Assembly (NCBI RefSeq): GCF_001010285.1
Contig: NZ_CP011104.1
Span: 2,232,001-2,296,000, forward strand
Length of the DNA stretch: 64,000 nucleotides
Source of the DNA: Photorhabdus thracensis
GTDB taxonomy: Bacteria > Pseudomonadota > Gammaproteobacteria > Enterobacterales > Enterobacteriaceae
Direction of reading: 5' to 3'
A program made the position numbers and the translations under genes. The notes under the pieces were generated by a model. That model did not search any database, was not told where the DNA came from, and saw only the letters and a program-made list of their open reading frames with translations. Below, one piece after another: positions 26,476-49,605 of the stretch. How positions within the stretch are numbered: position 1 is the first letter of the stretch; each line of letters opens with the position of its first letter.

Positions 26476-26591
26476 CTTGGCGCGAATGATTAAGCGGTTG
26501 TGCAGTGAATGACGAAGAAGCGTATCAGATTAGGGATGCGATCTCTAAGCTCCAATCTGCTTTGGCGTACAGTGGATATTCGCCACGGTAG
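26476..26591 (+). pseudogene. Module right-end footprint: frameshifted 65-residue protein gene
   Basis: GCGAATGATTAAGCGG through ...AVNDEEAYQIRDAISKLQSALAYSGYSPR-stop matches the 3' two thirds of the small module gene, but 23 bp are missing in the middle, breaking the frame. Everything upstream in the module (symE and beyond) is gone. It lies directly before an orphan immunity gene, as in complete units. Confidence 0.8.
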
Positions 26592-26598
26592 ATCATGA

Positions 26599-26636
26599 AT
26601 AAGGCCGGAAGATCACTTAGGATCTTCCGGCCTTAT
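26599..26636. terminator. Module right-end hairpin, copy beside orphan immunity gene 1
   Basis: AATAAGGCCGGAAGATC / GATCTTCCGGCCTTATT, a near-perfect 17-bp stem. It can end transcription from both sides, including the immunity gene that stops 10 bp away. Homology between module ends stops just after this element (ATTCAT). Confidence 0.8.
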
Positions 26637-26645
26637 TCATATGTT

Positions 26646-27083
26646 TTAGGATAAATTAGAGAATCCAAAATCTATATATCCCTCAGAGCTAATAACAAAG
26701 CACCATTTTTTATTTTCATCAAAAAAATAATGATGTTGTGGCACATTATTAATAACAAGCAAAGAAATAGCATGGAATTGCTCTGGATTCATAGCGATTG
26801 CAAAGTCTAAAGATGAATCATTTATATAATAAATCGTTTTACTGCTATATATAACCTTGTTAAGAGAATGATCTTCAACAAATTTCTTCATTAATAGTTC
26901 CAAATCATCATCTTTCGTATATAAACAACTTTGATGATGATTGGTTTTTAACCAATCTATCTTAGAGCCTTTCCATTTAAAAGAATCTGATAAAGAGTCG
27001 GCTATTTCTTCCCAATCATCTATGATTACTGGAGGATTAGGTTGTTGATTGATTTCATTTCTAATTTCTTCATCAAGAGTCAT
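26646..27083 (-). CDS. Orphan immunity protein 1 (for the Rhs tip at 27080)
   Basis: 145 residues from ATG 27081-27083, chosen because it overlaps the toxin stop as ATGA and has GGAGAGG just upstream; an ATG four codons earlier is also in frame. Acidic N-terminal half (MTLDEEIRNEINQQPN, DDWEEIADSL), no signal peptide, so a cytoplasmic target is expected. I recognise no named immunity family. Function follows from position: immediately 3' of, and translationally coupled to, an Rhs C-terminal tip. Confidence 0.7.
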   Translation of the reverse strand: MTLDEEIRNEINQQPNPPVIIDDWEEIADSLSDSFKWKGSKIDWLKTNHHQSCLYTKDDDLELLMKKFVEDHSLNKVIYSSKTIYYINDSSLDFAIAMNPEQFHAISLLVINNVPQHHYFFDENKKWCFVISSEGYIDFGFSNLS

Positions 27084-27880
27084 GAGCCTCTCCACGGTTT
27101 TGATGGAAGATCAAATAGCTTTTGCAGTTTAGTGACTGTTTTCTCAGTAGCATCAAAAAGGAAATGTTCACCTTTTTCTTTTCCACTAAAGACATTAATA
27201 TGGGCACCGCTTCTTTCATCATATTCAATTCTAAAACCTGTTTTTCCATCAGCGGTAGTCATTCCTACAGGCTGGTTCTTTGTAGAACCAAACTTACCAG
27301 TATTCACTTTCTCTGCTTTAAATTCTCTATCTGTAAGCCAATTTAATGCCTTATTTCTAGCTTGCTCAAACGAGTCTTTAACTGCTGGACAGCCAGCAAG
27401 ACCCAGCGGATCAATCCAGTTCGCCGGATTATGGACATACGAATAGGGATTCAGACTCCCTGCCAGCCCAATCGGATCGGTGCTGAGGTAACAACCCCCT
27501 TCCGGTAAATAATACCTGAACCGGTTATAGAATAAACCACTTTCCTCATCAAACAGTTGCCCCGCGAACCGCAGGCCCGGATCCAGCGGCATGGCTTCCG
27601 GCAGCGCCAGGTTCAGCCCGTACAGCGACTGTTTCGGCTGCCGCCACACCCGCTTACCGGCCGGGTCAAACAGCGCCAGCGGCTCACCGGTCGGCGCACT
27701 CACCGCATACTGGGTCTCAATCTCCCCCACCACCAGCTCCACCCGGTTGTCCAGATTGAGGGTAAACTGCTGCGTCTGCTGGGCCATCAGCTCCCAGCCG
27801 TCAAACACCAGATGGCGGATCATTTTCAGCCGGCCGTGCTGGTATTCGCGGATTTCCGCCGGCACATCCCCGTCCCACAG
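27080..27880 (-). pseudogene. Displaced Rhs C-terminal fragment with toxin tip 1
   Basis: About 600 bp of Rhs core end (MPAEIREYQHGRLK, AVSAPTGEPLALFDPAGKRVWRQ, FAGQLFDEESGLFYNRFRYY, TDPIGLAGSLNPYSYVHNPANWIDPLGLAG) precede an ~95-residue tip. The tip has GKFGSTKNQPVGMTTADGK, TGFRIEYDERSGAHINVF and FLFDATEKTVTKLQKLF, a pattern seen in tips of other polymorphic toxins; its exact activity is not clear to me. Core homology to the main rhs is cut at about 27880, where the left end of module A starts. It has no start or secretion region, so it is silent unless recombined onto a full rhs; 600 bp of shared core makes that feasible. Confidence 0.8.
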
Positions 27881-28538
27881 GTCTGGCGTATCCCGGCATC
27901 ATCATACTGACGGGTGGACTTTTCCCCCTGATTTAACAGCTTTTTTTCTGCTGTTTTTTCCTGGTTTGTTAAAGTGCATTCCAACTCGCCCCGACGGGCA
28001 CCTGGCCGATGTTAGCGTATTTTTTCCCCGACGTCAGCGCCGGGTTTTGGCCCGTTTTTCCTGCCATAACCGGGTTTTATCGGGAACCCGTGGCGGCGGG
28101 GCAGCTTGTCTGCGCCGCTGACGCGGGTTGGCCGGGTGCGGGCCGGCGAGGCCCGCAGGTGACGCTGTTCAGCAGGGAAGCCCCTGGGGGCTGCACGGGG
28201 CGAAGATGGTGAGCACGGGGACGAGCAACGAAGCGCAGCGCAGTGCGAGCCGCGCGCAGCCAGTGCAGCGGGGTTGGGGCGGGGGCAATAAACCGCGGCC
28301 AGCTTGCTGGCCTGCCTTCCGGGCTGTTGACCTTAACGGACTGACTGACAACGGTTTAAGGCAGATTTTCGCCCCGGAGCCGCCAGGGACGGCGGCGACT
28401 GCGGCGGTGGTTTTAGCATTGAGGCTGACAGCAGCGGGCGCAGCCCGGTGCGCCGCTGGGGCTGAGAAGCTCAACCCGGCGGCCAGCCGCTCACCTTTGT
28501 TGAGGTGGCCGCGCAGCGCCCTTGGGTGGGCGGCGCCG
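27881..28538. other. Module A left end: GC-rich noncoding block
   Basis: About 660 bp with high G+C, many short inverted repeats (for example GCCAGCTTGCTGGC) and no frame that looks like a real protein. It is conserved in modules B and C at the same place. Similarity between modules starts at TATCCCG (27899 here, 35472 in B), so this is the element's left boundary. Possible roles are replication/transfer origin, noncoding RNA or recombination enhancer; nothing visible decides. Confidence 0.6.
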
Positions 28539-28600
28539 ACATAATGTTTGTTATGCGAGGTGGGCCGTTCAGGCCCATTTTGCATAATGCCACATTATGT
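28539..28600. repeat. Nested hairpin (candidate recombination site), module A
   Basis: Three nested stems: ACATAATGT/ACATTATGT, TTATGC/GCATAA, TGGGCC/GGCCCA around a GTTCA loop. Modules B and C have TTAAGCG/CGCTTAA in the middle stem: both sides change so that pairing is kept. It lies next to the recombinase gene, and the point where module sequences switch from diverged to identical is 11-12 bp beyond it. This resembles a folded single-strand attachment site of the attC kind. A + strand terminator (GGGCC-loop-GGCCCATTTT) is the alternative. Confidence 0.6.
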
Positions 28601-28694
28601 TGAATGGCGGCTGACCGGCAACGATTGTCACCGAGAACGCCGATGTTCAGCGCCGGGCGGCCGGCATTTACTGCCGGGCACTCAGAAGGTGGGC

Positions 28695-48462: not shown

Positions 48463-48505
48463 CGCGGCGCTGAGGTGCTACAACACCCCGGTGCCGCTCA
48501 CCACA
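48463..48505 (+). promoter_or_regulatory. Structured leader before symE, module C
   Basis: GCGGC/GCCGC outer stem and GGTG/CACC inner stem. Compared with A/B, one inner pair changed on both sides (T-A to G-C) and others changed with pairing kept, which supports a functional RNA fold. Confidence 0.5.
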
Positions 48506-48529
48506 AGCAACTAATAAGGGTAGTTAATT

Positions 48530-48850
48530 ATGGCTAAGGCGCATTCTAAAGCAGAAGCGGCGATAAATAAAGCTGTGAAAACAGAACGTTATTACACGGT
48601 GGGCTATGTGCCGAACGGGAACAGGGTTAGCAACGCCACCCCGGCGATACATCTGAAGGGGCAGTGGCTGAGACAGGCGGGATTTAATACTGGCGGCCAG
48701 ATTACGGTGAAGGTGATGGACGGTTGTCTGGTGCTGATTCCAGAGAGTGAAGCCACGCAACAACAGCATCAGCAGTACCAGCGGCAACAGGCCCAACTGC
48801 GGGAGATTAAGCAGCAGATGCAGGCGCTGATAACCGGTTTTGCGGGTTAA
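48530..48850 (+). CDS. SymE-family toxin, module C
   Basis: 106 residues with four substitutions or so from A/B (for example NRVSN for NRVNN, IPES for IPDS). Much better conserved between modules than the repressor, hence under constraint or recently exchanged. Confidence 0.82.
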   Translation: MAKAHSKAEAAINKAVKTERYYTVGYVPNGNRVSNATPAIHLKGQWLRQAGFNTGGQITVKVMDGCLVLIPESEATQQQHQQYQRQQAQLREIKQQMQALITGFAG

Positions 48851-48864
48851 GGGGAGAACATGAG

Positions 48865-49062
48865 ATGACGATAGCGATTGAACATTTACAGGACATTCAG
48901 TTAACCCACCTTGAAGCGCTGGCCTTAGCCCAACTGGTTAAGCGGCTGAGCTGGGCGGAGATACGCGCCTGTGCCGTGAATGACGAGGAGGCGTATCAGA
49001 TTAAGGATGCGATCTCTAAGCTCCAATCTGCTCTAGCGTACAGTGGGTATACCCCAAGATAG
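48865..49062 (+). CDS. 65-residue conserved protein following symE, module C
   Basis: It differs from A/B at a few positions (RLSWAE, YQIKDA, YSGYTPR), with the same 14-bp spacing from symE. Confidence 0.75.
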   Translation: MTIAIEHLQDIQLTHLEALALAQLVKRLSWAEIRACAVNDEEAYQIKDAISKLQSALAYSGYTPR

Positions 49063-49071
49063 ATCATAAAT

Positions 49072-49106
49072 AAGGCCGGAAGATCACGGGGATCTTTCCG
49101 GCTTTA
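49072..49106. terminator. Module C right-end hairpin
   Basis: AAGGCCGGAAGATC / GATCTTTCCGGCTT, slightly imperfect. The immunity gene of the main rhs stops 23 bp beyond. Confidence 0.75.
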
Positions 49107-49128
49107 CCAATTTTTATTTCTAATAGTA

Positions 49129-49605
49129 TTAGTAAACTATTAGATTTCCATTAGGCCATTCCCCATCCCAGCCACAAGGGAGGTGACCACTTTCATATAC
49201 TTCAATTAACTTTTCAAAGAATAGAGGTTTTTTCAATTTATCCTTATATGTGTCTTCTATTAAGTAATGGACGATATCCCAACTAACGCATTGAGATAAA
49301 ATTAAAGTATCAAATCCATCTATATCGGGAATCTTTTTAACTACTTCTTTCTCAAGGAAATTTTTGGCATCTTTAGCTATATTGTTCCAATTTTGGAATA
49401 CAATTGAATGATTTATTGCTAAAAAGCCAGATATATCATTGGCTGCTTCTAGTGTTACATCTTCCCATTCTGGAGCAGAAATATATTGATTTGCATCACT
49501 CGAACTTTTTACCATCTTAATGCCGGGTATATTTAATTGATTTCCTACATTAGAAAACCAATCTATAGACAAAAGCCTGTTTATTGAATGACTAGATATT
49601 TTCAT
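49129..49605 (-). CDS. Immunity protein of the main Rhs effector
   Basis: 158 residues, overlapping the rhs stop codon by 4 bp (ATGA), so translationally coupled. No signal peptide, so a cytoplasmic target is expected, as for a nuclease toxin. Features: MVKSSSDANQYISAPEWEDVTLEAANDI, DGFDTLILSQCVSWDIVHYLIEDTY, and a short HLPCGWDGEWPNGNLIVY end. I cannot name the family; the end resembles several SMI1-unrelated immunity proteins finishing in GWxGxWPxGxLxVY. Confidence 0.75.
   Translation of the reverse strand: MKISSHSINRLLSIDWFSNVGNQLNIPGIKMVKSSSDANQYISAPEWEDVTLEAANDISGFLAINHSIVFQNWNNIAKDAKNFLEKEVVKKIPDIDGFDTLILSQCVSWDIVHYLIEDTYKDKLKKPLFFEKLIEVYESGHLPCGWDGEWPNGNLIVY

What the first reader, a model, noticed from the sequence alone, without database searches (positions are those of the whole stretch)
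26476..49605. Array of silent Rhs toxin-tip/immunity cassettes separated by a repeated recombinase-replication-SymE module
Seen: toxin tip + immunity pairs (27080/26646; 35042/34637; 42632/42227; main rhs 49602/49129) each adjoin, at the immunity-gene end, a module right end. The three intact modules (A, B, C) carry a tyrosine recombinase, CHC2-Toprim-ATPase replication protein, XRE repressor, SymE and a 65-residue protein. Right boundaries are sharp (hairpin, then the immunity stop codon within 5-23 bp). Left boundaries are at TATCCCG next to a scrap of Rhs core. Known: orphan Rhs/CdiA tips accumulate downstream of main genes and can recombine onto them. Inference: the module is a self-replicating or integrating element specialised for sites 3' of Rhs immunity genes and may capture, amplify or reorder tips, similar in logic to an integron for T6SS toxins.
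Basis: partly seen in the sequence, partly recalled or inferred. Interest (0 to 1): 0.88.

Follow-up and report, generated by a model that had tools for sequence, protein, structure and literature searches.

The report
Mobile element that swaps toxin tips
A piece of mobile DNA carries one antibacterial toxin tip, its antidote gene and its own recombinase, and appears to plug itself into a fixed spot inside bacterial toxin-delivery genes, giving the gene a new toxin while pushing the old one behind it, which could explain the strings of spare toxin tips seen in many bacteria.

Summary
The module (XerC-like recombinase, CHC2/Toprim primase-ATPase, repressor, SymE, DUF7706 protein) plus the adjoining immunity gene and toxin tip form one mobile unit (7.1-7.6 kb here). 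One end is the DPxGL codons at the Rhs core/tip junction; the other is a conserved left end. Insertion at DPxGL puts a new tip on the core and displaces the old tip and immunity gene intact. A sister clade of the recombinase does the same at the VENN codons of CdiA. Evidence: 62 of 81 evaluable distinct left ends lie exactly at DPxGL, VENN or a second Rhs motif (LWDG); natural empty and filled E. coli alleles for both main targets; a terminase gene split exactly at a DPxGL-like sequence; an 11.3-kb circular plasmid whose annotated genes are those of one complete and one partial unit; and a recombinase tree that splits by target (100/100). [quoted passage not shown] ten searches of an open-access library found no description of such an element. 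Recombinase activity is inferred, not assayed.

The parts
43058..50123 (-). Unit C (7066 bp): DPLGL-tip3-imm3 + module C + left arm; most proximal, its tip is the one on the main rhs
   Evidence: junctions read at 50123 (DPLGL, main rhs) and 43057/43058 (left end | DPIGL of next tip)
35468..43057 (-). Unit B (7590 bp): DPIGL-tip2-imm2 copy + module B + left arm
27881..35467 (-). Unit A (7587 bp): DPIGL-tip2-imm2 + module A + left arm of the alternative type, joined to the core at LWDG
26491..27880 (-). Oldest displaced remnant: P65 3' fragment, terminator, imm1, tip1, core scrap from LWDG
35456..35480 (-). Junction left end GTCCCTAA | GACCCGATTGGCTT (DPIGL); same at 43046-43070
28538..28602 (.). 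Inverted pair of dif-like arms (hairpin) beside int A; copies at 36127-36192 and 43717-43782; the B-duplication crossover (28585-28624) lies at its inner arm
28797..30212 (-). XerC-like tyrosine recombinase A (471 aa); B 36387-37802; C 43977-45032 (351 aa)
   Evidence: A; C; R-K-H-R-H-Y columns invariant (roles recalled)
30545..33457 (-). CHC2-Toprim primase / P-loop protein A; B 38135-41047; C 45257-47983
   Evidence: A; C
33534..33983 (+). HTH repressor A (RstR family); B 41124-41573; C 48084-48452
   Evidence: A; C
34057..34377 (+). SymE A; B 41647-41967; C 48530-48850
   Evidence: A; C
34392..34589 (+). 65-aa DUF7706 protein A; B 41982-42179; C 48865-49062
   Evidence: A; C
34596..34634 (.). 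Hairpin between P65 and immunity genes, probably a bidirectional terminator
34637..35467 (-). imm2 (Imm50, 34637-35032) and tip2 (Tox-HNH-EHHH); copy at 42227-43057
26646..27865 (-). imm1 (26646-27095) and tip1 ORF (27080-27865)
49129..51365 (-). imm3 (49129-49605) and 3' part of main rhs with tip3
51491..52873 (-). Transposase gene (460 aa) interrupting the main rhs; 5' part of rhs at 52884-55544; VgrG-type gene at 56049-57938

Best explanation
A mobile, probably self-replicating tip-exchange element. Shown by sequence comparison: a unit = [DPxGL-toxin tip-immunity-(DUF7706)-SymE-repressor-primase-recombinase-left arm] has fixed ends; it lies inserted with base precision at DPxGL codons of rhs genes (or, for a sister clade, VENN codons of cdiA); the old tip and immunity gene stay intact behind it; units occur in circular records. 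Inferred: the unit's XerC-like recombinase joins the circle's site (left arm + 6-bp spacer + toxin codons) to the matching codons in the host gene, so the new tip is read from the core; the primase-ATPase replicates the circle; repeated insertion at the proximal gene builds a last-in-first array; recombination between tandem units, often at a second, dif-like site next to the recombinase gene, duplicates, removes and reassorts units. Module-less tip+immunity cassettes with the same ends may be moved in trans.
For: (1) Junctions: of 152 recombinase 3' ends, 105 distinct, 81 not cut by contig ends; 56 match strictly (30 DPxGL, 22 VENN, 4 LWDG), 6 more on relaxed reading. (2) Empty/filled rhs alleles: E. 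coli Ec-U10 and A34 carry tip X on the main rhs; in S10 15.8 kb (two modules, plus an ISEc1 copy and Rhs fragments, so more than one event) lies between core and tip X, and identity with Ec-U10 (99.8% over 14.9 kb) ends exactly at the G of GACCC. (3) Cleaner, for VENN: E. coli Bongo and SMN013SH2 against C11, one 7782-bp unit. (4) Terminase gene: the halves beside H and beside the D array map head to tail (positions 1504/1503 on L206) on four intact relatives. (5) E and H share 7377 bp at 100% identity whose ends are DPIGL and GTCCCTAAGA. (6) Lonsdalea populi plasmid of 11,289 bp: one complete and one partial unit, both junctions left end|DPIG, the primase its only annotated replication gene. 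(7) Tree of 82 recombinases: 14/14 VENN-joined against 22/22 DPxGL-joined across a 100/100 branch. (8) Left ends are inverted repeats of the toxin codons around 6 bp: rank 1 of 319 geometries (VENN), 2 of 319 (DPxGL, rank 1 having the same centre); four empty sites 1-2 of 7. (9) Uninterrupted annotated rhs or cdiA through the junction in R12, FDAARGOS_1373, A20 and ZYB39.
Against: No recombination assay. 19 of 81 evaluable ends are not at the three motifs. The junctions scored had been selected with patterns that fix much of both arms, so point (8) is about one observation per subtype, not 25 and 22. The LWDG class (4 distinct) may have another origin. The empty attB has only one good arm, so integration there may be weak. 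The tree cannot separate the recombinase from the element that carries it. Filled alleles S10, SCU-113 and C11 have frameshifts or stops annotated in rhs or cdiA. The 8.8-kb Shigella circle equals about one period of a chromosomal tandem array and could have formed by homologous recombination. In own genome the D array's proximal tip abuts a terminase gene and E's tip end abuts a transposase gene, not an rhs core. Ordinary recombination also reshapes units: 22 of 34 sharp pairwise switches lie outside the dif-like region.
Confidence: 0.84

Rival explanations
1. Homologous recombination in the conserved rhs core (the 2009 C-terminal displacement model): circles carrying core + tip integrate by RecA in the core, and the module is a passenger.
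For: Core scraps that reach further upstream exist beside L131, L156 and L161; own-genome copies show gene-conversion-like mosaics; the model was proposed from Serratia and E. coli arrays (PMC2935791, passages).
Against: Breakpoints fall on one base for many unrelated tips; circle L185 carries no core upstream of DPxGL at either junction; an insertion split a terminase gene, where no Rhs core is present; the sequence shared at the DPxGL junction is about 14 bp; a parallel system exists at VENN in unrelated genes.
Confidence: 0.09
2. Host XerCD, not the unit's recombinase, does the work, at the dif-like arms beside int; the DPxGL boundary was formed once and is inherited.
For: Arm ATTCAACATAA differs by one base from the XerD box of dif (boxes recalled); dif itself is present once, exactly, in this genome; crossovers of the B duplication and of the R12/FDAARGOS_1373 6810-bp unit difference fall at this arm.
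Against: Empty/filled alleles break at DPxGL/VENN, not at the dif-like arm; the left end matches the toxin codons as an inverted repeat (with the selection caveat).
Confidence: 0.1
3. A selfish element that merely uses a conserved coding motif as a safe site, with toxin capture as a by-product (compatible with the mechanism, differs in function).
For: Insertions into non-toxin genes; SymE and, in other species, RelE/DinJ-type genes as addiction-like cargo.
Against: Closely examined units carry a tip + immunity that extend the host gene, in two unrelated delivery systems.
Confidence: 0.3

Closest known systems
Integrons (attI x attC cassette insertion by IntI; details recalled)
   Same: Tyrosine recombinase; cassettes enter at the proximal, expressed position; older cassettes pushed back as a silent array
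   Different: The unit carries its own recombinase and replication gene; the site is a coding motif of the expressed gene and the unit supplies the 3' end of that reading frame; the recombinase is below the curated cutoffs of the integron integrase models
Rhs C-terminal displacement model (Jackson et al. 2009, PMC2935791, passages read)
   Same: Tips displaced in order via circular intermediates
   Different: [quoted passage not shown] here a candidate integrase and its site are identified
CDI orphan cdiA-CT/cdiI modules (Poole et al. 2011, PMC3150448, and Ruhe et al. 2016, PMC4927057, passages read)
   Same: VENN-to-VENN orphan cassettes; the 2016 paper notes integrase genes between orphans and suggests transposition and site-specific recombination
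   Different: No element, attachment site or particular recombinase assigned in the passages read
Polyimmunity loci near XerC/D recombinases (Zhang et al. 2012, PMC3482391, passages read)
   Same: XerC/D-type recombinase genes beside immunity genes
   Different: Immunity collections; role of the recombinase only conjectured there
Shufflon (Rci, pilV tips; recalled, not looked up)
   Same: Tyrosine recombinase exchanges C-terminal segments at a constant/variable boundary
   Different: DNA inversion of a fixed set; not a mobile inserting replicon
Xer-using elements such as CTXphi (recalled)
   Same: dif-like inverted arms, RstR-family repressor
   Different: Integration is not at dif; own recombinase; no phage genes recognised in the unit
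Burkholderia bcpAIOB megacircle (PMC6350997, abstract and outline)
   Same: CDI genes on an excised circle
   Different: IS2-like transposase, about 210 kb, moves the whole locus

Membership tests
Integron | IntI-type integrase | tested here: not met
   TIGR02249 115 bits against cutoff 265; NF011946 69.7 against 435; NF002331 XerC 617.4 against 371
Integron | attC sites on cassettes and an attI site | not tested
   No attC model was run; the junction seen is a short core-type site
Integron | Proximal insertion and ordered array | tested here: met
   (comparison of natural alleles, not an assay)
Integrative element with tyrosine recombinase | Catalytic R-K-H-R-H-Y | tested here: met
   R175/R176, K200, H272, R275, H298, Y307 invariant in 10 sequences; residue roles recalled
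Integrative element with tyrosine recombinase | Precise ends, empty site known | tested here: met
Integrative element with tyrosine recombinase | Excised circle | tested here: inconclusive
   Circular plasmid records L185 and L186; no excision assay
dif-integrating Xer element | Integrates at chromosomal dif | tested here: not met
   dif intact once in own genome; the 14 own copies are elsewhere
Phage or phage satellite | Found in phage records | tested here: not met
   No match of the primase among 50,697 phage records at 1e-30; 2 weak hits (27%, 32% identity) in viral contigs
Conjugative element | Own transfer genes | tested here: not met
   None among the annotated genes of the units in L185-L188 (gene tables incomplete) nor among the five module genes; units ride on conjugative plasmids

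The most novel reading that the evidence does not exclude
A distinct class of mobile element, with recombinase lineages each tuned to the codons at the scaffold/toxin boundary of a different delivery system (DPxGL of Rhs, VENN of CdiA, possibly a third motif in Budvicia), which is the general engine behind orphan toxin/immunity arrays and toxin-tip exchange in Gram-negative bacteria, including module-less cassettes moved in trans.
Probability: 0.5. Interest if true: 0.95.

Novelty: new variant of a known kind. Interest (0 to 1): 0.88.

Why it matters
How polymorphic toxins exchange their tips while keeping old immunity genes has been open since at least 2009. [quoted passage not shown] Here is a concrete enzyme, site, circular form and pair of empty/filled alleles that make the question testable, and one logic that covers two unrelated delivery systems (Rhs and CDI).

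Tried and rejected
Module as insertion 3' of immunity genes: rejected, that junction is internal to the unit. Hairpin beside int as the sole site (my first hypothesis, note): rejected, because natural alleles break at DPxGL/VENN. Phage or satellite origin: no support. Rfam: no family reached its gathering score in 24000-52000. Array-end P65 fragments as attB: they start at residues 30, 30, 39 and 46, so treated as relics. Breakpoint clustering: 12 of 34 sharp switches (66 pairs of 12 own-genome copies) within the dif-like region +-30 columns of a 1981-column alignment; pairs are not independent. The E. coli dif-like region folds only slightly better than shuffles (z -2.1, 5 of 200 as good). 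Two further pattern hits (L147, L169) lie far out and were not counted. Unresolved left ends include Duganella, Atopomonas, Catenovulum, Budvicia and Rosenbergiella. Paper searches with nothing on point: (no papers).
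Full report
WHAT IS THERE. A VgrG-type gene and an rhs gene are followed by three tandem units and a relic. The module genes are a XerC-like tyrosine recombinase, a CHC2-Toprim protein with an invariant Walker-A-like stretch, an HTH repressor (RstR family in A), SymE and a 65-aa DUF7706 protein. 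Units A and B repeat with period 7590; B has C's left end and A's body.

THE UNIT. On the coding strand the left end reads ...GTCGGGATAGTCCCTAA and is followed at once by GACCCGATTGG, the codons D-P-I-G, in B and C. Of the 14 own-genome copies found with the primase, B, C, D1, D2, F, G1 and G2 join at DPxGL, with at least five different tips; A and G3 join at LWDG, about 134 codons upstream in the core; I1 and I2 join at the VENN position of a haemagglutinin-repeat protein with a PT-VENN domain; E, H and J have left ends in a terminase large subunit, another terminase large subunit, and an ORF fragment that I read as a group II intron reverse transcriptase (the last has no Pfam match). E and H share 7377 bp at 100% identity whose ends are exactly DPIGL and the left end. 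So the moving unit is tip + immunity + module.

BREADTH. The primase search matched 12 of 12 same-genus genomes including own, but one (G009) only at the 27% level of ordinary DnaG; 15 of 149 genomes in the family sample, own and one same-genus genome included; and 501 stretches in named genomes (E <= 1e-3, so other primases may be among them), of which the best 80 gave 71 distinct loci (Photorhabdus, Xenorhabdus, Pectobacterium, Brenneria, Serratia, Dickeya, Citrobacter and others). Scanning the loci given to one search found 152 recombinase 3' ends, 105 distinct; 24 were cut by contig ends. Of the other 81, 56 met the strict junction rule (30 DPxGL, 22 VENN, 4 LWDG) and 6 more a relaxed one (5 DPxGL-type, 1 VENN). 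The 19 misses: E, J, one IS insertion, one stretch of N, one short contig, three Xenorhabdus ends in Rhs core at another point, and 11 unresolved. H was merged with E by the duplicate key and also misses.

NATURAL EMPTY SITES. 55 of 5426 complete E. coli genomes carry the Rhs-type module, at 1-6 places each. In Ec-U10 and A34 the main rhs bears tip X directly (A34's rhs is annotated in pieces); in S10 the same tip lies behind 15,819 bp with two modules, an ISEc1 copy and Rhs fragments. Identity with Ec-U10 runs 14.9 kb (99.8%) up to the G of GACCC and resumes in the core (99.3% over 4.2 kb). SCU-113 has tip X displaced in the same way and differs from S10 further by an 848-bp tip+Imm8 cassette without module, also flush with DPIGL. 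For VENN, 4 of 5426 genomes match the Salmonella-plasmid module over at least 80%. Bongo and SMN013SH2 have cdiA with CT X; C11 has one 7782-bp unit inserted at VENN, with CT X and its neighbour gene intact behind it (flanks 97.3% over 7.0 kb and 99.7% over 11.0 kb). GXU-23-25-310 has a module-less cassette ending in the same left end.

A TARGET THAT IS NOT A TOXIN GENE. The 5' half of a terminase gene abuts H's left end; the 3' half of the same kind of gene abuts the tip end of the D array 2.2 Mb away. On intact genes of relatives (L206-L209) the halves meet within 1-2 bp (H side 88-96%, D side 89-99% identical). The site, GACCTTATAGACG, resembles the DPIGL codons GACCCGATAGGGC. Later rearrangement must have parted the halves, unless two insertions hit one site. 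Either way recombination within rhs core is not a likely cause.

THE SITE. With 25 distinct DPxGL and 22 distinct VENN junctions, the arm left of a 6-bp spacer is complementary to the arm formed by the toxin codons: TCCCTAT-GACCCG-ATAGGGC and AGTTGTT-GTTGAG-AATAACT at best; mean 4.56 and 5.09 matches of 7, against 1.88 and 1.76 averaged over 319 geometries; four empty sites score 1-2. Caveat: these junctions had been selected by patterns that fix much of both arms, so this is about one observation per subtype; still, two different left ends each match their own toxin motif. This is the form expected of a tyrosine-recombinase core site. The recombinase tree (82 distinct proteins of at least 280 aa out of the 152 ends) puts all 14 VENN-joined and all 22 DPxGL-joined (plus 1 LWDG) enzymes on opposite sides of a 100/100 branch.

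SECOND SITE. Beside int lies an inverted pair of arms (CATTCAACATAATG...); single-strand fold z -4.4 (A) and -7.3 (B), but only -2.1 in the Shigella plasmid. One arm resembles dif (recalled sequence; found once, exactly, at 4.57 Mb). The B duplication crossed over at 28585-28624. E. coli R12 and FDAARGOS_1373 differ by one 6810-bp unit, with the crossover within about 70 bp around this arm. In 66 own-genome pairs, 12 of 34 sharp switches fall here and 22 elsewhere. I read it as a resolution/reassortment site or origin; confidence about 0.5.

CIRCLES. The Lonsdalea populi plasmid NZ_CP072857.1 (11,289 bp) holds one complete unit and one with only part of the module; both junctions are left end|DPIG with no core upstream; its only annotated replication gene is the primase (PLSDB gene tables are incomplete). 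The Shigella flexneri plasmid NZ_CP055112.1 (8,758 bp) equals about one period of an E. coli chromosomal array (98.9% over 8.8 kb). Units also ride on plasmids typed as conjugative.

LITERATURE. Passages read: PMC2935791 (displacement by homologous recombination through circles; integrase not known to co-occur), PMC3150448 (VENN-to-VENN orphans), PMC5361080 (no evidence for an integrase), PMC4927057 (integrase genes between orphans, site-specific recombination suggested), PMC3482391 (polyimmunity loci near XerC/D), PMC11278526 and PMC5131962 (CDI loci). PMC6350997: abstract and outline. Ten searches, of which I saw the listings, found no description of this element; only open-access PMC papers were searchable, so subscription papers and preprints may hold one.

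VERDICT. Mechanism: insertion by the unit's recombinase at toxin-junction codons, 0.84. Shown by comparison: unit, ends, empty/filled alleles, circular records. Inferred: enzymatic roles, replication, action in trans.

Noticed in passing
window 32624-33413 (A) against 40214-41003 (B): A and B are identical except for this patch in the primase gene (34 mismatches), which looks like gene conversion from another copy.
   Followed up: no
window 51491-52873: A 460-aa transposase gene interrupts the main rhs; identical proteins at four other places in the fetched regions, one inside module J's left arm, one in array G, one at window 16954-18336. A second VgrG-Rhs locus with the same tip3 and no such interruption lies about 45 kb away (2.326-2.333 Mb).
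   Followed up: partly
L018 (E), L022 (H), L204 (D array end), L025 (J): Non-toxin targets: two terminase large subunit genes and a probable reverse-transcriptase fragment; two halves of one kind of terminase gene lie 2.2 Mb apart, implying a large rearrangement. E's tip end abuts a DDE_5-type transposase gene.
   Followed up: partly
L104/L178 (Budvicia): Two tandem units share a left junction followed by GDSKAAKG and different downstream proteins, perhaps a third target motif.
   Followed up: no
L202 13918, 16280; L200 9286; L191 26078-26926: Module-less toxin/immunity cassettes that end in the same left-end sequence or flush with DPIGL: possible non-autonomous cassettes.
   Followed up: partly
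window 30265-30690 and 37855-38280: A 193-nt direct repeat (85%) at and beyond the 3' end of the primase gene.
   Followed up: no
window 28797-30212: Recombinase A (471 aa) has a duplicated N-terminal region compared with recombinase C (351 aa).
   Followed up: no
plasmids collection: 142 Salmonella plasmid records match the Enterobacter CDI unit; CP074295 matches over 98%, the 14 others listed cover only about 20%, in the recombinase region.
   Followed up: no
window 26491 (array end); own genome 2301571 and 476876 (array ends); 2247489 (isolated): 3' fragments of the 65-aa gene remain at three array ends and at one further place in the window region.
   Followed up: partly
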